From an uncultured Lachnospiraceae bacterium (GTDB lineage Bacteria; Bacillota; Clostridia; Lachnospirales; Lachnospiraceae), in NCBI GenBank assembly GCA_946549035.1, contig CAMNQH010000024.1:1-48765 (forward strand): a stretch of DNA of 48,765 nt, given 5' to 3'. The notes under the pieces were generated by a model, which made no database searches, had not been told where the DNA came from, and worked only from the letters and a program-made list of their open reading frames with translations. A program made the position numbers and the translations under genes. Positions 23,290 to 36,038 of the stretch are shown piece after piece (within the stretch, counting starts at the first letter, position 1; every line of letters starts with the position of its first letter).

Positions 23290-23312
23290 TAAGAAAATTC
23301 AATACAATAAAG

Positions 23313-23352
23313 AAGACACCATCAACGAAATTTTTTGTGATGGTGTCTTTTA
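23313..23352. terminator. Terminator hairpin, shared by convergent transcripts
   Basis: A perfect 12-bp stem (23313-23324 with 23338-23349) around a 13-base loop, with T runs on either side. It ends the ABC exporter operon on the plus strand and the small unit A transcript on the minus strand. Confidence 0.8.
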
Positions 23353-23367
23353 CACTATGCTGTCCAT
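23350..23367 (-). CDS. Five-codon ORF MDSIV, copy in unit A
   Basis: ATGGACAGCATAGTGTAA ends directly at the terminator stem. GGAAGG lies about 10 bases before the ATG. The same peptide is encoded in unit B with different third bases in the last codon and stop. Whether it is translated is not known. Confidence 0.3.
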   Translation of the reverse strand: MDSIV

Positions 23368-23911
23368 TGGACGATACCTTCCTTTCTGTATTGATTTTGA
23401 AGTAGTCTTAGATTGTACCTCCTTTTTATTTTATGAACTAATTATATCAGATAATAGAAGATAAGTCAATATATTATTTGAAAAATATATAAAAAATAAT
23501 TTATAAACAAAATATTTTAAAAAGGCATCACCAACTCAACTTCTTTGGTGATGCCTTCTAAACTATGCTGTCCATTGGATAATACCTCTTCTTTCTTTTG
23601 TCTTTTAAAAGCAGTCATTCTGTTCCGATTCTTGAACTTATTCATGCCGTTGAATTTTTAAAATGTAACCCATATCTGAACGGTACTATCTGGATTATCA
23701 TTTTATTCTTTTGTTCTCTTTTCAAGGCTTCAATTCCAAAACAGATTGTCGAGAGTGATTTAGCTGGTTTTCTACATTTGCTTTCTCGTCACAATATGTA
23801 AAATGATGTGAATATGGTTACCTTAATCTTATGTTACGTTTTCTTTGGACCGTACCTCCTGTTCTTAGATTATAAGGTAATTCATTCGTCTTCCTTTGGA
23901 CTGTACCTCCT
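23362..23911 (-). repeat. Five dispersed copies of an SD-like motif (GGAGGTAC-RGTCCAAWGGA)
   Basis: Minus-strand copies end near 23423, 23385, 23587, 23860 and 23911 and read 5' to 3' as AGGAGGTAC or a variant, two or three bases, TCCAA or TCTAA, and a purine-rich end. The copies next to terminators have GTCCAATGGAC (a palindrome in unit A), which creates the ATG; the promoter-proximal copies have CCAAAGGA or CCAAAGA without an ATG. Confidence 0.55.
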
Positions 23912-23946
23912 TTCTTGGATTTCACTTGTTTCTCTTTGCTTTTGTT
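23516..23946 (-). ncRNA. Units D-C-B: second predicted minus-strand transcript, about 430 nt
   Basis: Promoter TTGACT (23981-23976), 17 bases, TATAAT (23958-23953), again inside a CAGATATAAT context like unit A. Two SD-like motifs follow: AGGAGGTACAGTCCAAAGGA (minus strand around 23893-23911) and AGGAGGTACGGTCCAAAG (23843-23860). Then come about 260 AT-rich bases without a convincing gene, a third looser copy GAGGTATTATCCAATGGAC (about 23569-23587), the same MDSIV ORF and a 13-bp hairpin (23522-23534 with 23545-23557) with a T5 tail. The layout repeats that of unit A. Function unknown. Confidence 0.45.
23558..23575 (-). CDS. Five-codon ORF MDSIV, copy in unit B
   Basis: ATGGACAGCATAGTTTAG, directly followed by the terminator stem and preceded by GAGGTATTATCCA. 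It is identical in peptide to the unit A copy. No evidence of translation beyond the conserved position and peptide. Confidence 0.3.
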   Translation of the reverse strand: MDSIV

Positions 23947-24093
23947 GAATTCATTATATCTGATAAAAATGTAAAAGTCAAGCATTATTTAAAAATAATT
24001 GCATTAAACATACTTATAAATGAACAGATAAGTATAAGAAGTAAAATATTCTGAAAATAATAAGAAAAAGTGGATTTATTTGTTATAAAATCC

Positions 24094-26655: not shown

Positions 26656-26697
26656 AAACGCTAAAGTGTGTATGAGAATTACGATAGGAGCGAATAT

Positions 26698-29262
26698 ATG
26701 GGAGTAATTGAAAAAATCTTTGGAACGCATAGTGATCGGGAACTCAAGCTGGTGAATCCAATCGTAGATAAGATCGAAGCTCTGCGGTCGGACATGCAGG
26801 GATTGTCCGATGAGCAGTTGCGGGATAAGACGAAAGAGTTTAAAAAGCGTCTGGAGGACGGCGCGACGCTGGAAAGCATTATGCCGGAAGCTTATGCAGT
26901 GGTGCGGGAGGCAGCGAAACGTTCCATTGGTCTTGAGCATTACCGGGTACAGTTGATTGGCGGCGTTGTGTTGCACCAGGGACGTATTGCAGAGATGAAG
27001 ACCGGTGAAGGGAAAACGCTGGTGTCTACCCTGCCGGCATATTTGAACGCTTTGGAAGGAAAAGGCGTTCATATTGTAACGGTCAACGATTATCTGGCAA
27101 AACGTGATGCAGAGTGGATGGGAAAGGTTCATGAATTCCTGGGCCTTACCGTAGGCGTTGTTTTAAATTCTATGGACAATGATGAACGGAGGGCTGCATA
27201 CGCCTGCGATATCACATATGTAACAAACAATGAACTGGGATTTGACTACCTGAGAGATAATATGGTCATCTATAAGGAACAGCTGGTGCAGAGGGATTTG
27301 TACTATGCCATTATCGATGAAGTGGACTCTGTTTTGATTGATGAGGCCCGAACGCCTTTGATTATTTCCGGGCAGAGTGGGAAATCCACCAAACTATACG
27401 AAGCTTGCGATGTTTTGGCCAGACAGATGACAAAAGGTGAAGCAAGCCAGGAATTCTCCAAGATGGACGCCATTATGGGAGTGGAGATAGAAGAATCCGG
27501 AGATTTCATTGTAAACGAAAAAGATAAAGTGGTAAACCTGACGGCTGACGGCGTAAAAAAGGTGGAAAACTTTTTCAAAATAGAGAATTTGGCGGATGCG
27601 GAGAATCTGGAGATTCAGCACAACATTATCCTGGCCCTTCGCGCTCATAACCTGATGTTCCGGGATCAGGACTATGTGGTTCAGGACGATAAGGTTTTGA
27701 TTGTTGACGAGTTTACCGGCCGTATTATGCCAGGCAGACGTTATTCGGACGGACTTCATCAGGCGATCGAGGCAAAAGAGCATGTGAAGGTAAAACGGGA
27801 GAGCAAGACATTGGCTACCATTACCTTCCAGAATTTCTTTAATAAATATTCCAAGAAGGCCGGTATGACAGGTACGGCATTGACAGAGGAGAAAGAATTT
27901 CGGGATATATATGGGATGGATGTTATTGAGATTCCCACGAATATGCCAGTAATTCGGAAAGACCTCCAGGATGCGGTATATAAGACCAAAAAGGAAAAGC
28001 TCTATGCAGTAATTCAGGAGATTATCAAAGCCAACGAAAAAGGCCAGCCTGTTCTGGTGGGTACCATTACCATAGAGGCTTCCGAAGAGATTAGCGGTCT
28101 GTTGAAGCGTCAGGGGATTCAGCATAAAGTACTGAATGCGAAGTTCCATGAGCTGGAGGCGGAAATTGTAGCAGAAGCGGGCCTGCATGGCGCCGTTACT
28201 ATCGCCACCAATATGGCGGGGCGTGGTACGGATATCAAATTGGATGAAGAAGCCAAAGCGGCGGGAGGGCTTAAAATTATCGGTACGGAGCGCCATGAGT
28301 CCAGACGTATTGACAATCAGCTGCGAGGCCGTAGCGGACGTCAGGGAGATCCGGGAGAATCCCAGTTTTTTATTTCTCTGGAGGATGATTTGATGCGCCT
28401 GTTCGGTTCCGAGCGTTTGATGGGAATGTTCAACGCACTGGGAGTGCCGGAGAATGAGCAGATTCAACATAAAATGCTGACTAACGCCATTGAAAAGGCT
28501 CAGATGAAGATTGAAAACAATAACTTTGGCATTCGTAAGAATTTGCTGGAGTATGACCAGGTTATGAATGAGCAAAGAGAGATCATCTACAAAGAGCGGC
28601 GCCAGGTACTGGATGGAGAAAGTATGCGGGACGCCATCTATAAGATGATTACGGATCGGGTGGAAAATACGGTGGATACCTGCATTTCAGCGGATCAGTC
28701 CAGCGAGGAGTGGGATTTGAATGAGCTGAATCAGCTCCTTCTTCCCGTAATTCCGGTAAAGCCTGTTTTTCCAGATGATATCAAGGATATTAAGGCCAAT
28801 GAGTTGAAGCATCGCCTGAAAGAGCAGGCCGTGAAATTATACGAGCTGAAAGAAGCGGAATTTCCGGAGCCGGAGGCAGTACGCGAGCTGGAGCGCGTCA
28901 TTCTTTTGAAGGTTATTGACCGGAAGTGGATGGATCATATCGACGATATGGATCAGCTGCGTCAGGGAATCGGTCTCCAGGCTTATGGACAGAGAGATCC
29001 GTTGGTGGAATATAAGATGAGCGGTTACGACATGTTTGACAATATGATTGCCGCGATTCAAGAAGACACCGTCAGGCTGCTGCTTCACGTTAAGATTGAG
29101 CAAAAAGTAGAACGGGAGCAGGTAGCAAAAGTAACAGGGACAAATCGGGATGATTCAGCCCAGAAGGGGCCAAAGCGCAGAGAAAGCGCTAAAATATACC
29201 CCAACGATCCCTGTCCTTGTGGTAGCGGTAAGAAATATAAACAATGCTGTGGCAGACGGTAG
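26698..29262 (+). CDS. secA: Preprotein translocase ATPase SecA
   Basis: 854 residues. SecA is the ATPase that pushes preproteins through SecYEG. Walker A MKTGEGKT is at about 100-107 and the DEAD-like [17 protein letters not shown] at about 205. The second motor domain has [12 protein letters not shown] and [13 protein letters not shown], followed by the helical scaffold and wing domains. The C-terminus ends with the zinc and SecB-type motif [13 protein letters not shown]. The ATG at 26698 follows TAGGAG; the frame extends ten codons upstream without an SD. In many Firmicutes prfB follows secA, but here the Wadjet operon does, which suggests an insertion at this junction. Confidence 0.96.
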
Positions 29263-29362: not shown

Positions 29363-29382
29363 TTAAAGCAGAGGTGGAAAGT

Positions 29383-30900
29383 TTGAAAAAGCTTGGGGTC
29401 ATACAGGAGACGGCTTATCTGACGACAGGAAATACACCGCAGTATCGAAGAATTATGCGGATTTTTTTCCAGGAAAACGAAAAAATGCGGTTTCAGCTGT
29501 ACAAAGAGGAGATATTAGAGCTGCTGCGGGAATATCCGGGATTTGAAGATTATTCCATGGAGCAGTTGAAAGTTGATTTGGCAATGCTGGTAGAATGGAA
29601 AAATCTAACGCCGATTCAGGATCCGAAGCGGGTCTATACCATTGCAGATTATAAAAATAAACAGTTTCGTTATTCCATGTCAGAGTACGCAGTAGAGATT
29701 GAGCGTCTTACCGTTAAGCTGGAGAATTTATTTATGGAAGGGGGGAAACCTTCCTCCAGCTATCTTGTGAGGATTGAAGAAGCGTTTTCCCGGTTGAGGC
29801 AAGTTCAGAACGCTTCCATGAAGGAAATTAATGAATGGTGGCATAATCTTCAGGAGGATTTTAAGCGCCTGAATCATAATTATCAAGATTATCTGCGGGA
29901 ATTTTACTCTGGAAGAGGGGAGAAGATTCTAAAATCTGTAGAATTTATCCTGCATAAAGATAAATTCATCACATATCTCAAAGAGTTTATAAAGGAACTC
30001 CAGGAAAATGCCATAAAGATTGAAGGGCTTTTGCGGGAGCTAACGGAGGAGGAGCAGCAGGAACTTGTAGAAAAGGTGATTGCAAGCGAGCTGGAGGTGC
30101 CCCATTCTCTTACAGAGATTCAGGAACCAATGGATCAGTATGTGCGGGAAAATATAACTGGCAAGTGGGAAGCGCTGCGGCGGTGGTTTCTTCCTAGGGA
30201 AAATCGTCCCAGCGAGTGCGCCAGAGTGCTGGATATTACGGATGATATTATCCGCAAGATTATTCGGAATGCGTCTTTGATTGTTCAGCTGCAGAATTGG
30301 GGTATCAGCCGTAAAGACGATTACAAGAAGTTTATTTCTATGTTTTTGGATTGTGAAGATATGGATGAGGCTCATAAGCTGGCCGCTCATATTTTTGGAA
30401 TTCAACATATCCGGCACTTTAAGGTAAACAGTGACCGGTCTACGGACAGCATTGTTAGCAGCGTCTACGATGAGGAAGCGATGGAGTTTTTATTAAAACC
30501 CAGAACCAGGACGTATCGCCCCAGAGTGGATCGGTCAGGCTTTGAGACGAAATCCATGGAGAAGCTGATTCAGCGGAATCAATATTTAAAGCAGGCGCAG
30601 GAGGAGAAGCGCATGGTAATGCGTTACAAAAAAGGAAGCCGTCTGGCCTTATCGGAGATTCAGGAGGTGGTTCCTCAGGCAGCCCGGGAGACATTGCTTC
30701 GCTGGATTGCGGCGGCCAACCTTACCACTACTGGAAAAGGGCGGACGGAGTACGGGCAGGAATACCGTCTGGTTAAAACGGATCAAAACTGTACACTGCA
30801 TTGTGAGGACGGCGACTTGGTTTTGCCGGCGTATGTATTTGAATTTGCGGAGGAAAAAGATGGAAGCGGTTCGCACCTTGATGGAAAAATACTGGATTAA
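29383..30900 (+). CDS. jetA: Wadjet protein JetA (DUF2397/TIGR02677)
   Basis: 505 residues. JetA is the kleisin-like (MukF-like) subunit of the Wadjet SMC complex, which restricts plasmids. The N-terminal 100 residues look like a winged-helix domain and contain YRRIMRIFFQENEKMRF and YRYS/FRYS-type segments typical of this family; long helices follow (about 100-290), and the C-terminal part ends with a second winged-helix-like region. The likely start is the TTG at 29383, six bases after GAGGTGG; a GTG at 29374 overlaps that SD. It is the first gene of a four-gene operon with overlapping frames. Confidence 0.9.
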   Translation: MKKLGVIQETAYLTTGNTPQYRRIMRIFFQENEKMRFQLYKEEILELLREYPGFEDYSMEQLKVDLAMLVEWKNLTPIQDPKRVYTIADYKNKQFRYSMSEYAVEIERLTVKLENLFMEGGKPSSSYLVRIEEAFSRLRQVQNASMKEINEWWHNLQEDFKRLNHNYQDYLREFYSGRGEKILKSVEFILHKDKFITYLKEFIKELQENAIKIEGLLRELTEEEQQELVEKVIASELEVPHSLTEIQEPMDQYVRENITGKWEALRRWFLPRENRPSECARVLDITDDIIRKIIRNASLIVQLQNWGISRKDDYKKFISMFLDCEDMDEAHKLAAHIFGIQHIRHFKVNSDRSTDSIVSSVYDEEAMEFLLKPRTRTYRPRVDRSGFETKSMEKLIQRNQYLKQAQEEKRMVMRYKKGSRLALSEIQEVVPQAARETLLRWIAAANLTTTGKGRTEYGQEYRLVKTDQNCTLHCEDGDLVLPAYVFEFAEEKDGSGSHLDGKILD

Positions 30901-32002
30901 CAAGGGGAAAGAAAAAGAACTGTATCAGAAGACACGGCGGGATCTGAATCAGTACCGCCGTTTTTTTACAGAGCAGCTTGGATGGAATCTGATTAATAAT
31001 GAACGTGTACTAAAGCTGGAGAAGCTTCCGGCCCATGCGGAGCCATTTATGGGGATCACAGCCTTTACAGAGGTTCGGGACTATTGTATTTTTTGCACTC
31101 TTCTTATTTTTCTGGAGGATAAAGAGGATGGGGAGCAATTTCTTTTATCAGAGCTGGTAGCTATGGTAGAGGCGCAGCTGCAGGAATCTTTGGATATTGA
31201 TTGGACCATGTTCCACCAGAGGAAATCTTTGGTGCGGGCGTTGCGGTTCGCAGAAGAAACCGGGCTTTTGGAAGTATATGACGGTTCCAGCGAGAGTGTG
31301 GCAAGCGGCATGGAGCATGAAGTATTGTATGAAAATACAGGCTTGTCCCGTTATTTTGCAGTGAACTTCGGTTACAGCATTTCTGACTTTACGTCCTGGC
31401 AGGACTTTGAGAAGGAACAGATTAAGGAATTGGAAACGGATCGGGGACATTTTCGAATAAACAGGGTATACCGCCAGCTGGCGGCGGCCCCGGCTATGTA
31501 CTGGGAGTCTGGGGAGGATGCAGATTCTTTGTATCTGAAAAATCAAAGGCAGTGGATCGGAAAGCACCTGGACGAATATCTCAGGGGCAGTTTGCACATT
31601 CATAAAAATGCGGCATTTTTTGTGCTGGATGAAGAAGACTGCTTTGGGGAAATCCATCCAAGGGAGGCCACAGTCAGTGAAGTATGTCTGAATGTTTGTA
31701 CCCAACTGCGGGAATATAGTACTTCTCCCGGGGCGAAACGGCAGGCAGACGACTGTGTGAGGATTACAAAAGAGGAATTTAGAGAACTTTTGTCTGTCTG
31801 TAAGGAGAAGTATCAAAAGGCATGGAGCAAAGAGTTCAGGGAGATGAAGCTTCCAAAGCTGGAAGAGACGCTTTTGGCTTATATGAAATCCTGGATGTTG
31901 GCGAAAGAGACAGAAGAAGGACTTATCTTGTATCCGGCAGTGGGAAAGCTCACCGGCGTCTATCCCCGCGGATTTTTGGAGAGGGAGGAGAAGCATGAGT
32001 AA
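30860..32002 (+). CDS. jetB: Wadjet protein JetB (DUF2398/TIGR02678)
   Basis: 380 residues. JetB is the KITE (MukE-like) subunit that bridges kleisin and SMC heads. The sequence has the family's early RRFFTEQLGWNLINNERVLKLEKLP, then DYCIFCTLLIFLED and LVRALRFAEETGLLEVYDG in the winged-helix region. The ATG at 30860 follows GCGGAGG by six bases and lies 41 bases inside jetA, so the two are read in different frames over that stretch. The frame is open further upstream inside jetA, but that part does not match the family. It overlaps jetC by 8 bases. Confidence 0.9.
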   Translation: MEAVRTLMEKYWINKGKEKELYQKTRRDLNQYRRFFTEQLGWNLINNERVLKLEKLPAHAEPFMGITAFTEVRDYCIFCTLLIFLEDKEDGEQFLLSELVAMVEAQLQESLDIDWTMFHQRKSLVRALRFAEETGLLEVYDGSSESVASGMEHEVLYENTGLSRYFAVNFGYSISDFTSWQDFEKEQIKELETDRGHFRINRVYRQLAAAPAMYWESGEDADSLYLKNQRQWIGKHLDEYLRGSLHIHKNAAFFVLDEEDCFGEIHPREATVSEVCLNVCTQLREYSTSPGAKRQADDCVRITKEEFRELLSVCKEKYQKAWSKEFREMKLPKLEETLLAYMKSWMLAKETEEGLILYPAVGKLTGVYPRGFLEREEKHE

Positions 32003-35000
32003 TCGTTGGCGCATGAATCGAATGGGATTTGTAAATTTTTGGCTTTATGATGAAGAGACTTTTTTATTTCAAGACGGGAAACTGCTTTTGCGGGGACAGA
32101 ACGGTTCTGGAAAATCTATTACCACCCAGAGCTTTATTCCCTTTATTCTGGATGGGGACCGTAGTCCCAGCCGGCTGGATCCCTTCGGTTCCAGTGACCG
32201 GCGTATGGAGTATTATTTTCTGGGAGACGGAGGACGGGAGGAGGCCACTGGATATTTGTTCCTGGAATTTAAAAGGGAGAATTTGGAGCAGTACCGTACC
32301 ATTGGGATTGGCCAGCGGGCCCAGAAAGGGAAGCCTATGGCATTCTGGGGGTTTTTAATATTGGACGGAAGACGGATTGGCTACGACTTACAGCTTTATC
32401 GGGAAGCCGGGGCTAATAAGATTCCCCATACGAAGCTGGAAATGCGCCAGATATTGGGAGAAGAAAATCCTTTTACCGAAGTGCAACGGGATTACATGGA
32501 GTTGGTGAATAAACATATTTTTGGGTTTTCCAGTATGGAGCAGTATGGGCAGTTCATAAAACTTTTGATTAAGGTGCGGGCGCCGAAGCTCTCCAAGGAA
32601 TTTAAGCCTTCCAAAGTATATGAAATTCTCAATGATTCTTTGCAGACGTTGACGGATGATGATTTGCGGGCCATGGTGGAGACTATGGAAAAGATGGATG
32701 ATATTCAGGGGAAGCTGGAGCAGCTGAAGGAGGCGTATAAAGACCTTACGGCGATTCGGAATGAATATCATCGGTACAATCTGTATATGCTGGGGAAAAA
32801 AGCCCAGGGATATGTGGAGGAAAAAAAGCGGGTTGACGGCATACGGGGGCAGTTGGACGCCAGAGAACAGGAACATGAGGAGAAGAAAGAGGAAATCCAC
32901 AGAAGAGGTGAGGAAGAAAAACGCCTGCAGGATGAAATTCATGTGCTGGAAGCAGAAAAGGATACGCTGCACATGGAGGATTTGGAAGAATCCATGGACA
33001 AATTGGCAAGGGCTCGGAAAGAGCAGGGACAGGCGGAAGCGGAGAAGCTGGTCATTGAAGGGCGCCTGGAACAGTCCAGAGAACAAATTCTCTTAAAAGA
33101 CGGAGAGCTTCGTGCTTGCCAGGGAAAGATCGACGCATATGAACAAGACTTAAAGAAGGGTTGGAAGGAACTGGAAGAGGAAAATGAGACGGCTCAGTTT
33201 TCCCGTCATGGAGAGATACGAGAATGCCTGGATGTAGGAAAACAGGAATCGCTTTTAGTATTTCAGCGTGAAATCAAGCAGTTGGAGCATGAGGTTACGG
33301 CAGGATATGAAGCTCAAAGAACGCTGTTTGAACTGCAGAAGGAGTGGGATAAGGAAGAAGAAAAGCTGCAGGCGCTTTTGGCACAAAAGCAGGAGGCGCA
33401 GAACAGGCAGGAGGCGGCAGAACAGCTGGAGGATGACTGCCGAGACGAATTGATAGAGGAAATTCACAGGCTATCTGCCGAGAACCAGGAAATGCCTTTG
33501 TCAGGAAGCGAACGTGACGCGCTGGTACAGATGGTGCAAAAATACGAAAGCCCCTTTCAATTTGGAGAAGTGTTGGATTATTATTATCGTCTCTGGACGA
33601 AAAAGAACCAGATTTTAGAGGGGAGCCGGCTGCAGAAGGAAAATCAGCGTAATCAGAGCCAGGGGGAGAAAAACAGATTAAAACGGGAGCTGGAGGAAAT
33701 CGAAAAGATGCCTATGCCGATTCCCGTACAAAAGCAACAGACCAAAGCCGCCAGGGCTGTTTTGCAAGTGCGGGGGATTCCCTTTCTGCCTTTTTATGAG
33801 GCGGTGGAATTTCAGGAGGGCTTGTCTCAGGAAGCAAAAAACCGGCTGGAGGGTCAGTTGGAGGCAGCAGGCCTTTTGGACGCCTTGGTAGTTCCAAAAG
33901 AAGAGTATGAGCGGGCGAAAGAGGAGCTGAAACAATTATCCGACGTGTTGATTTCCTCTGATGGGACAAGGGGGATGGGATTTCCCCATTTAATCGGAGC
34001 GGATGTGGAGCCCAGGTTCAAGCAGACGATAGAAGAGATATTATCCCATATTCTGGAAACAGACCAGTCCGGGGGAGAACTGGTATTGTCATTGGATGGA
34101 TATTTCAAGAACGGGCTTTTGGAAGGCTGGTGCCAGGGGGAGGAAGAAGCTTCCTATATTGGCGCGGCTGCCCGGAAGCGAAAAAAAGAACGGATGCTGC
34201 AGGAGAAGCAAGAGGAGCTGGAGCAGGAAGAACAGCACTTAGCTGAGCTAGAGCAAGAACTGTCCAGGCTGCGGGAACGGTTGAAGATTTTGCAGCAGGA
34301 ACGGGAAAGATTTCCCTCTTTCGGAGACTTGAACCAGGCGATTGATATGAATAAAAGCTGCCAGGAGGAGGTAAACCGCTGCATGAATCAGATGGCGGAA
34401 CAGGAGGAAACCGTCGCTTCTGCCAAGCATGCAGTGAAGGGGCAGGAGCAGCAGGTATGGAAACTGTGCCGGCCATTGCCGTATTTTCGGACTTTGGAGG
34501 CTTATGAGGAAGCCAGGGAGGCCGTTCAAAGCTATCAGGATATTTTGGAGGGACTGGGTCATGTCCTTAACGCCCGGGAAGCCCAGCAGCATCAAGCCGA
34601 TCATATCCGAGAGATGACAGAACGGGAAAAGGAGAGACAGGAGACAGATTATGAATATCTTCGCCGGGCCCAGCGCAGGATTAAGGAGTTAGGCGTTCAA
34701 ATACAGAATCTTGCAGCGTATTTGGAGGACCCGGAAGTAAAACGGATGGCGGAGCGGCTAGCCGGTATCAAAAAAGAATTGGCGGAGAAAACATCCCGGT
34801 TTCAAGATAATAAAACAGAGCTTGCGGTATTGAAAAGTCAAATGGAAAAATTGAGGTCGGAGATACAGTCCTTAAAGGAGCGGGCAGTGACGCAGATTGC
34901 CAGGGAGACCAAGCTGCGGGAATATTTTGCCCAGGAACTGGCTTTGGGACTGGTTATGAAGCAGGAAGGGGAGAATCTCTATGAAGCGGCGGTCGCCGCC

Positions 35001-36038
35001 CAGGGACAGATGCGGGAGGCGGATAAAAACCGTTCCGGGGCGGAGATGACCACATTCCTAATGAAAACGTTCCATGCTCATATGGGAACCATAAGCAGCT
35101 ATGGCGCTGCAATGGAAGAATGTTTTTCCGGGGGAGACGACAGTACCATGCTTCATACCAGGCAGAGGATTTCGGCAGCCTGGAACGGGAAAAAGCTGTA
35201 TCTGGAAGAGTTCTATGGTGTGATCCGGGATGCCATCGACAGTACGGAGCTTTTGATTCGGCAAAAAGACCGGGAGATGTTTGAGGGTATTTTGTCCGGG
35301 ACTTTAAGCCGGAAGCTCAGCAGTCGTATCCGGGAGAGCCGAGGCTGGATTCGGGATATGTCTGCTTTGATGAAAGGGATGGATACCTCCATGGCGCTGA
35401 CCTTTTCCTTGGAGTGGAAACCGAAAGCCGCAGAAGGAGAGCAGGAGCTGGATACCCAGGAATTGGAAAAAATTCTGGCCAGGGAGCAGGAATTACTGAC
35501 AGAAGAAGATATTGAGAAGGTCTCAGCTCATTTCAGGACAAAAATTTACAATACCAAACGCAGCGCCCAGGAAAATGGAGATACGGTAAATTACATGGAA
35601 CTGGTAAGGGATGCTCTGGACTATCGGAAGTGGTTTGAGTTTTGCATGTATTATTACCGGAATGAGGAAAATAAGAAGGAGCTGACCAACGGAGCGTTTA
35701 ACCGCTTCAGCGGCGGAGAAAAGGCGATGGCTATGTATGTGCCTTTGTTTGCGGCAGTGAACGCCCAGTACAAGAAGGCAGAATATGTGGATCATCCCAG
35801 AATCGTTGCCCTGGACGAGGCGTTTGCCGGAGTGGATGATAAAAATATCAGCAGTATGTTTGAATTGGTGGAAAAGTTGGATTTTGACTATATCATGAAT
35901 TCCCAGGTGCTTTGGGGCTGCTATGAAACGGTAAAAAAACTTCGGATAGCAGAACTTTTACGTCCTGGAAATTCCAATGTAGTAACGGTGATTTATTATA
36001 GCTGGAACGGCCATGAAAGGATGTTGGATGAGCAGTAA
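31995..36038 (+). CDS. jetC: Wadjet protein JetC, SMC-like ATPase (TIGR02680)
   Basis: 1347 residues. JetC is the MukB-like motor that extrudes DNA loops in Wadjet. The head begins with Walker A RGQNGSGKS at about 33-41; long Glu/Lys/Gln-rich coiled coils run from about 230 to 560 and from about 690 to 1000, with a hinge-like part between them (about 600-690). The C-terminal head has the ABC signature FSGGEKAMA at about 1237 and Walker B RIVALDEAFAGVD at about 1270, with the catalytic glutamate present. All ATPase motifs are intact, so the motor should work. It overlaps jetB by 8 bases and jetD by 11. Confidence 0.93.
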   Translation: MSNRWRMNRMGFVNFWLYDEETFLFQDGKLLLRGQNGSGKSITTQSFIPFILDGDRSPSRLDPFGSSDRRMEYYFLGDGGREEATGYLFLEFKRENLEQYRTIGIGQRAQKGKPMAFWGFLILDGRRIGYDLQLYREAGANKIPHTKLEMRQILGEENPFTEVQRDYMELVNKHIFGFSSMEQYGQFIKLLIKVRAPKLSKEFKPSKVYEILNDSLQTLTDDDLRAMVETMEKMDDIQGKLEQLKEAYKDLTAIRNEYHRYNLYMLGKKAQGYVEEKKRVDGIRGQLDAREQEHEEKKEEIHRRGEEEKRLQDEIHVLEAEKDTLHMEDLEESMDKLARARKEQGQAEAEKLVIEGRLEQSREQILLKDGELRACQGKIDAYEQDLKKGWKELEEENETAQFSRHGEIRECLDVGKQESLLVFQREIKQLEHEVTAGYEAQRTLFELQKEWDKEEEKLQALLAQKQEAQNRQEAAEQLEDDCRDELIEEIHRLSAENQEMPLSGSERDALVQMVQKYESPFQFGEVLDYYYRLWTKKNQILEGSRLQKENQRNQSQGEKNRLKRELEEIEKMPMPIPVQKQQTKAARAVLQVRGIPFLPFYEAVEFQEGLSQEAKNRLEGQLEAAGLLDALVVPKEEYERAKEELKQLSDVLISSDGTRGMGFPHLIGADVEPRFKQTIEEILSHILETDQSGGELVLSLDGYFKNGLLEGWCQGEEEASYIGAAARKRKKERMLQEKQEELEQEEQHLAELEQELSRLRERLKILQQERERFPSFGDLNQAIDMNKSCQEEVNRCMNQMAEQEETVASAKHAVKGQEQQVWKLCRPLPYFRTLEAYEEAREAVQSYQDILEGLGHVLNAREAQQHQADHIREMTEREKERQETDYEYLRRAQRRIKELGVQIQNLAAYLEDPEVKRMAERLAGIKKELAEKTSRFQDNKTELAVLKSQMEKLRSEIQSLKERAVTQIARETKLREYFAQELALGLVMKQEGENLYEAAVAAQGQMREADKNRSGAEMTTFLMKTFHAHMGTISSYGAAMEECFSGGDDSTMLHTRQRISAAWNGKKLYLEEFYGVIRDAIDSTELLIRQKDREMFEGILSGTLSRKLSSRIRESRGWIRDMSALMKGMDTSMALTFSLEWKPKAAEGEQELDTQELEKILAREQELLTEEDIEKVSAHFRTKIYNTKRSAQENGDTVNYMELVRDALDYRKWFEFCMYYYRNEENKKELTNGAFNRFSGGEKAMAMYVPLFAAVNAQYKKAEYVDHPRIVALDEAFAGVDDKNISSMFELVEKLDFDYIMNSQVLWGCYETVKKLRIAELLRPGNSNVVTVIYYSWNGHERMLDEQ

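What the first reader, a model, noticed from the sequence alone, without database searches (positions are those of the whole stretch)
23306..23981. Two related minus-strand mini-transcription units with a shared promoter, SD-like motif and terminator
Both units begin with TTGACT-N17-TATAAT in the same CTGATATAAT/CAGATATAAT context, carry AGGAGGTAC motifs that lack a start codon at normal spacing, and end in the same order: looser motif copy, ATGGACAGCATAGT, stop, perfect hairpin. The two terminator stems differ in sequence (GACACCATC versus GGCATCACC), so structure is kept rather than bases. This looks like a small RNA or micro-peptide family that I cannot match to a known one. The AGGAGGT motif is nearly a full complement of the 16S rRNA 3' end, so ribosome binding or sequestration is possible.
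Basis: partly seen in the sequence, partly recalled or inferred. Interest (0 to 1): 0.7.

Follow-up and report, generated by a model that had tools for sequence, protein, structure and literature searches.

The report
RNA with serial start-less ribosome sites
Gut bacteria of the Lachnospiraceae family carry an uncatalogued family of free-standing RNA genes, most of which line up unusually strong ribosome-landing sequences without start codons and end in a five-codon micro-gene pressed against a terminator hairpin; the RNA is predicted to capture small ribosomal subunits, which, if true, would be a new way for bacteria to handle idle ribosomes.

Summary
Both minus-strand units have a near-consensus promoter, AGGAGGTAC motifs without start codons, and an end made of a Shine-Dalgarno (SD) site, ATG-GAC-AGC-ATA-GTN-stop (MDSIV) and a hairpin. 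A covariance model finds this end in 46 of 120 family genomes at E<=1e-6; matches read outside gave three clear members in one other family of the order and one possible, none of 12 beyond the order. Rfam has no match. The micro-ORF is real: all 89 aligned ends have ATG/TTG and an in-frame stop, 75 with exactly five codons, 42 peptides. Internal motifs keep SD, spacing and an early in-frame stop (67 of 81; other frames 14 and 33) while 71 of 81 lack a start codon. Predicted pairing with the 16S tail exceeds nearly all ordinary ORF starts. A hairpin with loop UGACGAGAAAG covaries. Downstream orientation is random (46 same, 51 convergent), so this is no leader. Best reading: an RNA that docks 30S subunits on non-initiating sites. 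Transcription, docking and function are inferred.

The parts
23953..23981 (-). unit 1 promoter (TTGACT-17-TATAAT)
   Evidence: promoters 97-553 nt upstream of the terminal motif in 36 of 51 related elements
23896..23911 (-). docking motif 1a: AGGAGGTACAGTCCA then AAG GAA GAC GAA TGA (no start codon, in-frame stop)
23871..23880 (-). linker TTACCTTATA between 1a and 1b; its UACCU can pair with the SD AGGUA (possible internal anti-SD)
   Evidence: pairing not tested beyond complementarity
23845..23860 (-). docking motif 1b: AGGAGGTACGGTCCA then AAG AAA ACG TAA (no start codon, in-frame stop), 51 nt after 1a
23767..23805 (-). hairpin A, loop UGACGAGAAAG
   Evidence: covariation
23558..23575 (-). 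unit 1 terminal micro-ORF ATGGACAGCATAGTTTAG (MDSIV)
23516..23608 (-). unit 1 terminal module (SD + micro-ORF + terminator hairpin), model match R2 84.1 bits
23441..23469 (-). unit 2 promoter (TTGACT-17-TATAAT)
23408..23423 (-). docking motif 2a: AGGAGGTACAATCTAA, no start codon
23350..23367 (-). unit 2 terminal micro-ORF ATGGACAGCATAGTGTAA (MDSIV)
23307..23400 (-). unit 2 terminal module (SD + micro-ORF + terminator hairpin), model match R2 76.8 bits

Best explanation
The two units belong to a family of free-standing RNA genes of Lachnospiraceae, most of which carry very strong SD sites without start codons and end in a micro-ORF, usually of five codons, set against a terminator hairpin, and they are predicted to act as docking strips for small ribosomal subunits. 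Likely mechanism: a strong promoter would make much RNA; each internal site would pair its AAAGGAGGU...UCCA with the 16S 3' tail and hold a 30S subunit that cannot initiate because CCN, AAG or ACA sits where AUG should be. The last site has a start codon; a ribosome there would make a short peptide and stop at the base of the hairpin, so the 3' end would be occupied as well. The docked subunits would shield the RNA from nucleases and take 30S subunits out of the free pool, buffering translation. Shown: family, architecture, micro-ORF signature, hairpin covariation, predicted 16S pairing. Inferred: transcription, docking, buffering.
For: The terminal module defines the family, and internal SD sites occur in 64 of 101 elements by a strict pattern, while bodies differ between genera. 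Internal sites: predicted duplex with the 16S tail -19.9 kcal/mol on average (80 sites) against -10.0 for 278 mechanically chosen ORF starts, 0.7% of which reach it; shuffling only the half behind the SD gives -17.7. A fairer control, the best of all candidate starts of 330 ORFs of 200 aa or more, gives -11.7, with 10 of 330 reaching -19.9. The tail is confirmed in 5 of 15 genomes searched. A start codon stands in 10 of 81 internal sites but in 89 of 89 terminal modules aligned. In-frame stop within five codons in 67 of 81 internal sites, 14 and 33 in the other frames, shuffles 27.6 on average and 39 at most in 500; after clustering at 60% identity 25 of 32 against 6 and 13, shuffles 10.6, at most 18. 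Sites lie 48-57 nt apart in 23 of 26 neighbouring pairs, 51 nt in 11. The motif GAGGTAYRGWCCA is nearly private to these loci: by my tally 36 of 43 places in 20 chosen genomes; the reversed pattern gives 15 places. Start codon to stem is 19 nt in 72 of 89, just beyond an initiating ribosome (toeprint about +16, recalled). Precedent for 30S docking on a start-less SD: STAB-SD (passages of PMC4113751).
Against: No expression or ribosome-binding data were available. The internal-site pattern requires part of the SD, so the duplex comparison favours it by construction, and about 3% of ordinary ORFs have a start as strong. Many internal sites have GACCA instead of GTCCA, which loses one pair with the 16S tail. 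Keeping stop codons in sites without a start is odd if they only dock 30S; it suggests some initiation, or descent from true micro-ORFs. 8 of 32 clustered internal sites do have a start codon. Genomes of genus g255 (L163-L165) show no internal SD motifs by eye, and in f8 (L150-L152) the internal sites read have start codons. Hairpin A suggests a further partner.
Confidence: 0.42

Rival explanations
1. A trans-acting regulatory RNA whose working part is the variable body (hairpin A or unpaired segments); the start-less SD sites and the terminal micro-ORF only protect it from RNase J and 3' exonucleases, as STAB-SD does on cry3A mRNA.
For: Hairpin A covaries (score 0.551 against 0.248 shuffled, 0 of 500); STAB-SD precedent (PMC4113751 passages); the first docking site lies within about the first 100 nt of many predicted transcripts.
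Against: By a strict loop pattern hairpin A was found in only 20 elements, and compact members (L220, L221) consist of little more than docking sites and the terminal module, so the body seems dispensable.
Confidence: 0.3
2. The short peptide is the product, as a signal or as an inhibitor acting on the ribosome.
For: Coding signature with synonymous changes, ATG/TTG starts and all three stops; MDSIV 38 and MDEIV 8 of 89.
Against: 42 different peptides among 89, including METMS, MGISV, MDDR, MYCTEEHQ; MDSIV is over-counted because the first search patterns contained it. Length and place are kept better than residues.
Confidence: 0.08
3. A cis-acting leader: translation of the micro-ORF opens the terminator and lets transcription run into a downstream gene (attenuation).
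For: The stop codon sits one nt before the stem in 74 of 89, where a ribosome would touch the hairpin.
Against: Nearest downstream ORF: 46 on the same strand, 51 convergent, 4 not called of 101 elements (mechanical ORFs, some elements share a locus). In the window unit 2 points into the end of a convergent ABC transporter gene.
Confidence: 0.05
4. A sponge for the RNA-binding protein CsrA (GGA motifs in AAGGAGG and AUGGA), like CsrB/RsmZ.
For: Many GGA motifs; CsrA is present in 15 of 20 chosen carriers, the window genome with two copies.
Against: 5 of 20 carriers show no CsrA, among them three single-contig genomes of 99-100% completeness (G250, G291, G647), and G291 has the longest array I saw. 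Frame and stop conservation are not explained.
Confidence: 0.07
5. Not a feature: chance terminators behind A-rich sequence, or ends of an insertion sequence.
For: Beyond the order the model hits only hairpins without the SD-start-stop module (12 of 12 read), so weak hits are unreliable.
Against: Promoter, internal motifs, micro-ORF and hairpin recur together in unrelated contexts; a 28-letter pattern with up to 3 mismatches hits 18 of 397 genomes while the reversed control is 0 in all 397 rows.
Confidence: 0.02

Closest known systems
STAB-SD of Bacillus thuringiensis cry3A mRNA (PMC4113751, passages read; original 1996 paper not seen)
   Same: SD-like sequence that directs no initiation, can pair with the 16S 3' end, and holds a 30S subunit that blocks RNase J1.
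   Different: STAB-SD is a site in the 5' UTR of a protein-coding mRNA. Here up to five sites stand in series in a free-standing RNA with no protein gene, most with an early in-frame stop, followed by a micro-ORF and terminator.
raiA, OLE, ROOL and GOLLD noncoding RNAs (recalled; only search listings and abstract starts seen)
   Same: Free-standing, conserved bacterial RNAs, several from Firmicutes.
   Different: Those are highly structured RNAs with Rfam models (recalled); no Rfam model matches here. This family is purine-rich and built from ribosome-site modules.
CsrB/RsmZ protein-sponge RNAs (recalled)
   Same: Repeated GGA-containing motifs in one RNA, acting by titration.
   Different: Motifs here are mostly followed by an in-frame stop and are not tied to CsrA presence.
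Minigenes and leader micro-ORFs (recalled; search listing only)
   Same: Very short ORF with strong SD.
   Different: No consistent downstream gene, and most internal sites lack a start codon.

Membership tests
STAB-SD element | SD-like sequence complementary to the 16S 3' end that is not followed by a start codon | tested here: met
   duplex energies; 71 of 81 internal sites without ATG/TTG
STAB-SD element | lies in the 5' UTR of a protein-coding mRNA | tested here: not met
   hairpin before any gene; downstream orientation random
STAB-SD element | 30S binding stabilises the RNA against RNase J1 | not testable with these tools
   needs RNA half-life measurement
any Rfam 15 family (raiA, OLE, ROOL, 6S and others) | covariance model match at gathering score | tested here: not met
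   0 in window; in 18 related loci six matches to other RNAs, none overlapping the element by coordinates; sub-threshold hits are unrelated families
CsrB/RsmZ-like CsrA sponge | CsrA present in carriers | tested here: not met
   absent in 5 of 20 chosen carriers, three of them single-contig genomes
CsrB/RsmZ-like CsrA sponge | GGA in loops of hairpins, CsrA binding | not tested
   -
transcription attenuator / leader | terminator lies upstream of a regulated gene on the same strand | tested here: not met
   46 same strand, 51 convergent, 4 not called of 101
translated micro-ORF | start, frame and stop conserved while codons vary | tested here: met
   89 of 89 aligned ends, 42 peptides, ATG 62 / TTG 27, TAA 42 / TAG 38 / TGA 9; exceptions left out of that set are told in Tried and rejected

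The most novel reading that the evidence does not exclude
A dedicated ribosome-parking RNA: a bacterial RNA that strings 30S subunits on non-initiating SD sites about 51 nt apart and caps its 3' end with one initiating ribosome held against a hairpin, storing or gating small subunits in Lachnospiraceae.
Probability: 0.3. Interest if true: 0.92.

Novelty: categorically new. Interest (0 to 1): 0.76.

Why it matters
Conserved, start-less, very strong ribosome sites in series have no place in the usual picture of an mRNA. If they hold 30S subunits, bacteria would have an RNA, not only proteins such as HPF or RMF, that manages idle ribosomes, in one of the main families of the human gut. No Rfam model matches the family, so routine annotation would pass it over. 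The prediction is testable by RNA-seq, ribosome profiling and a few base changes.

Tried and rejected
Rejected: IS end or chance terminator; known Rfam RNA; cis leader; an upstream ORF running through the SD motifs (an in-frame start upstream in 16 of 81, several of them inside the promoter, i.e. before the transcript); CsrA sponge as the general explanation. The RNAalifold stem pairing TGGAC with GTTTA in R1 was dropped for R2 because codon conservation explains those columns. Hairpin B (CAG..GUAaCgUU..AUAUG with a 5-6 bp stem in about 18 elements) was collected by requiring pairing, so its apparent covariation is circular and is not claimed. Literature: searches (MDSIV; terms on RNA in Lachnospiraceae) found no paper; 72 and 78 listed two papers each, not on this by title and abstract start; 71 listed seven on peptidyl-tRNA, rescue and related themes; 68, 70 and 79 listed work on STAB-SD, structured RNAs and raiA, none naming this family in what I saw. 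Only passages of PMC4113751 were read. Subscription papers are not searched.

Rows dropped: L018 was left out of the terminal-module sets because its frame is long and no hairpin follows. Of the sources behind the 53 strong places, nine were not given: L076, L084, L087 (near copies of L048, L054, L041) and L109, L110, L113, L118, L120, L123; of these L109, L110, L118 and L123 have short micro-ORFs with a stop at or near the stem, L113 has no stop before the stem, and L120 has no start codon at the expected place. Further near copies were left out, and so were L153-L157 and L161. L160, L161 and L204 (one genus) have no early stop; L160 is among the 89 (ten codons). Hairpin A: 23 loop matches were found, 3 outside elements dropped before the count. 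One of the eight ATG internal sites is unit 1's own terminal site in G002, counted because it lies upstream of unit 2. L206 and L214, hits within the family, are ordinary gene-end terminators.

Full report
OBSERVATION. The minus strand of 23306-23981 holds two units. Each starts with TTGACT-17-TATAAT (23981-23953 and 23469-23441; the two best of 16 promoter-like sites in 5 kb). Unit 1 has AGGAGGTACAGTCCA and AGGAGGTACGGTCCA 51 nt apart, unit 2 has AGGAGGTACAATCTAA; a start codon is missing behind all three. The pattern occurs 4 times in the window against 0.27 expected. Each unit ends in a looser SD site, ATG GAC AGC ATA GTT/GTG and a stop (MDSIV), directly followed by a long hairpin. Predicted transcripts are about 430 and 130 nt.

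FAMILY. In the window's own genome only these two places fit the terminal motif without mismatch. A 28-letter pattern with up to 3 mismatches hit 18 of 397 genomes of the same family; the reversed control was 0 in all 397 rows. A scan of named genomes with a MDSIV-type pattern gave 39 places, titled Lachnospiraceae, Roseburia, Lachnoclostridium, 'Clostridia bacterium' or 'Bacterium 1XD21-13'. A covariance model of the 3' end (R1, 35 sequences) hit 193 of 397 family genomes at E<=0.01, by my hand count 90 of them below 1e-6. A wider model (R2, 89 sequences) hit 46 of 120 family genomes, one per genus, at E<=1e-6. In the order, 60 of 295 genomes matched R1 at 0.01, 28 of them outside the family; I fetched and read eight of those 28: three of one genus are clear members (L150-L152), one is possible (L153), four are ordinary terminators. 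In the class, 21 of 293 matched R2 at 1e-4; none of the 12 outside the order, when read, has an SD with start codon and early stop before the hairpin; most look like gene ends, L205 and L211 like intergenic promoter-plus-terminator stretches. One of the 12 is below 1e-6, so weak hits must not be counted and the prevalence is a rough figure. Blastn found no plasmid match and one 'phage' record whose flanks encode what reads as phosphoglycerate mutase and enolase, i.e. probably bacterial chromosome. A viral-collection scan for the terminal motif found nothing; one for the internal motif found a single contig with a compact copy.

TERMINAL MICRO-ORF. In 89 aligned ends every one has ATG (62) or TTG (27) at the place and an in-frame stop (TAA 42, TAG 38, TGA 9); 75 have five codons, the rest 4, 6, 7, 8 or 10. 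There are 42 different peptides (MDSIV 38, MDEIV 8, most others once). The first stem base lies 19 nt after the start's first base in 72 of 89 and one nt after the stop in 74 of 89 (the stem columns come from a model-fitted alignment). The hairpin pairs in 98.3% of cells; covariation 0.848 against 0.305 shuffled, 0 of 500, slid versions at most 0.171 (same caveat). MDSIV is over-represented because the first patterns contained it; the model hits were not chosen for the peptide and show the variety. Exceptions seen: L113 (no stop before the stem), L120 (no start), L160, L161 and L204 (late stop). Selection acts on frame, length and distance to the hairpin more than on residues.

INTERNAL SITES. 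Among 101 distinct elements I found 81 distinct internal sites in 64 by a strict pattern. The codon in the start position is CCA 23, AAG 16, CCG 14, ATG 8, ACA 6, CCT 5, CCC 3, TTG 2, AAA 2, ATC 1, ACC 1. In that frame a stop comes within five codons in 67 of 81, mostly as the fourth codon, with TAA, TAG or TGA; the other frames give 14 and 33, shuffles 27.6 on average. Homology inflates such counts; after clustering at 60% identity 32 sites remain, with 25 against 6 and 13, shuffles 10.6 and at most 18, and a start codon in 8 of the 32. As a rule no ORF from upstream runs through them (16 of 81 have an in-frame start, several inside the promoter). Neighbouring sites lie 48-57 nt apart in 23 of 26 pairs, and the linker of some contains UUACCYC, complementary to the SD GAGGUA, which could mask the next site until a ribosome opens it (inferred). 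Sites are predicted to pair with the 16S tail GGCUGGAUCACCUCCUUUCU at -19.9 kcal/mol on average, 24 terminal sites at -16.3, 278 mechanically chosen ORF starts at -10.0; 0.7% of these reach the internal mean; shuffling the part after the SD gives -17.7. Taking the best of all candidate starts for 330 ORFs gives -11.7 and 10 of 330 at -19.9 or below. The tail was seen in 5 of 15 genomes, all exact, not in the window's own incomplete assembly. The motif is nearly private: by my tally 36 of 43 places in 20 chosen genomes lie in such RNA loci; the reversed pattern gives 15 places.

STRUCTURE. A hairpin with the nearly invariant loop UGACGAGAAAG occurs in 20 elements found by the loop alone; its stem covaries (score 0.551 against 0.248 shuffled, 0 of 500 shuffles, slid versions at most 0.225; 73.9% of cells paired against 55.2 shuffled). 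The number of pairs with two-sided changes, 7 of 9, does not exceed the shuffles (mean 6.9); the number of such cells does (34 against 15.7, 0 of 500). In unit 1 it lies at 23767-23805. In L202 the same loop closes the terminal hairpin.

CONTEXT. Neighbours vary: the next downstream ORF is on the same strand in 46 and convergent in 51 of 101, 4 not called. In the window unit 2 faces the end of an ABC transporter gene, and a transglutaminase-like gene starts upstream; secA follows at 26668. A near-consensus promoter was found in 36 of 51 elements; five of the 15 misses have under 340 nt of upstream sequence, ten have 600 nt, one of which (L021) has a promoter 723 nt upstream.

MECHANISM. The shared parts are ribosome sites. 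I infer an abundant RNA whose start-less sites hold 30S subunits, with one initiating site at the 3' end, and a role in withholding or storing subunits. Rivals are listed; the strongest is a regulatory RNA that uses docking only for stability, as STAB-SD does (passages of PMC4113751). Nothing here shows transcription, binding or function.

NOVELTY. No Rfam family matches, and the paper searches named in Tried and rejected found no description. A free-standing RNA made of serial start-less SD/stop modules ending in a micro-ORF against a hairpin fits no kind that I know; the nearest, STAB-SD, fails on being part of a protein mRNA.

Noticed in passing
L028, L029, L030, L038, L040, L042, L046, L051, L059, L071, L072; window 26668-29262: In 11 loci sharing one protein cluster the terminal motif lies 0.7-1.5 kb from a gene whose L038 copy reads as SecA (about 855 aa where complete), divergent from it in 10 of 11; in the window secA (Pfam) starts 2.7 kb upstream of the unit 1 promoter. 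Possibly the ancestral place of the RNA.
   Followed up: partly
L163, L164, L165 (genus g255): Same kind of promoter and terminal module (TTG starts, peptides MEKQK / MEISK / MEILN) but the body between them is a different, conserved-looking sequence without SD motifs, as if the ends were fused to another RNA.
   Followed up: no
L008:1715 (G002 unit 2): The second unit of a sister species has a changed micro-ORF (ATG GAC AAC CCA GTA TAA) but keeps frame, stop and hairpin.
   Followed up: no
L058 4432-4598: A TwoAYGGAY RNA (RF01731, 122.7 bits) lies on the opposite strand a few hundred bases upstream of the element in this locus.
   Followed up: no
L221 (MT835613.1 19306-22429): A record filed as Bacteriophage sp. 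carries a compact element between genes that read as phosphoglycerate mutase and enolase, so it is probably bacterial chromosome.
   Followed up: partly
L118 (G291): Five docking sites in a row at 56-57 nt, the last one with ATG.
   Followed up: partly
L205: In a genome of another order a promoter-like site is followed by AAGGTAAAGTCC and a hairpin but no start codon; perhaps a distant or decayed relative.
   Followed up: no
window 29374-36038: DUF2397 and DUF2398 genes followed by a large ORF at 31995-36038 behind secA; from memory such genes occur in defence-type operons.
   Followed up: no
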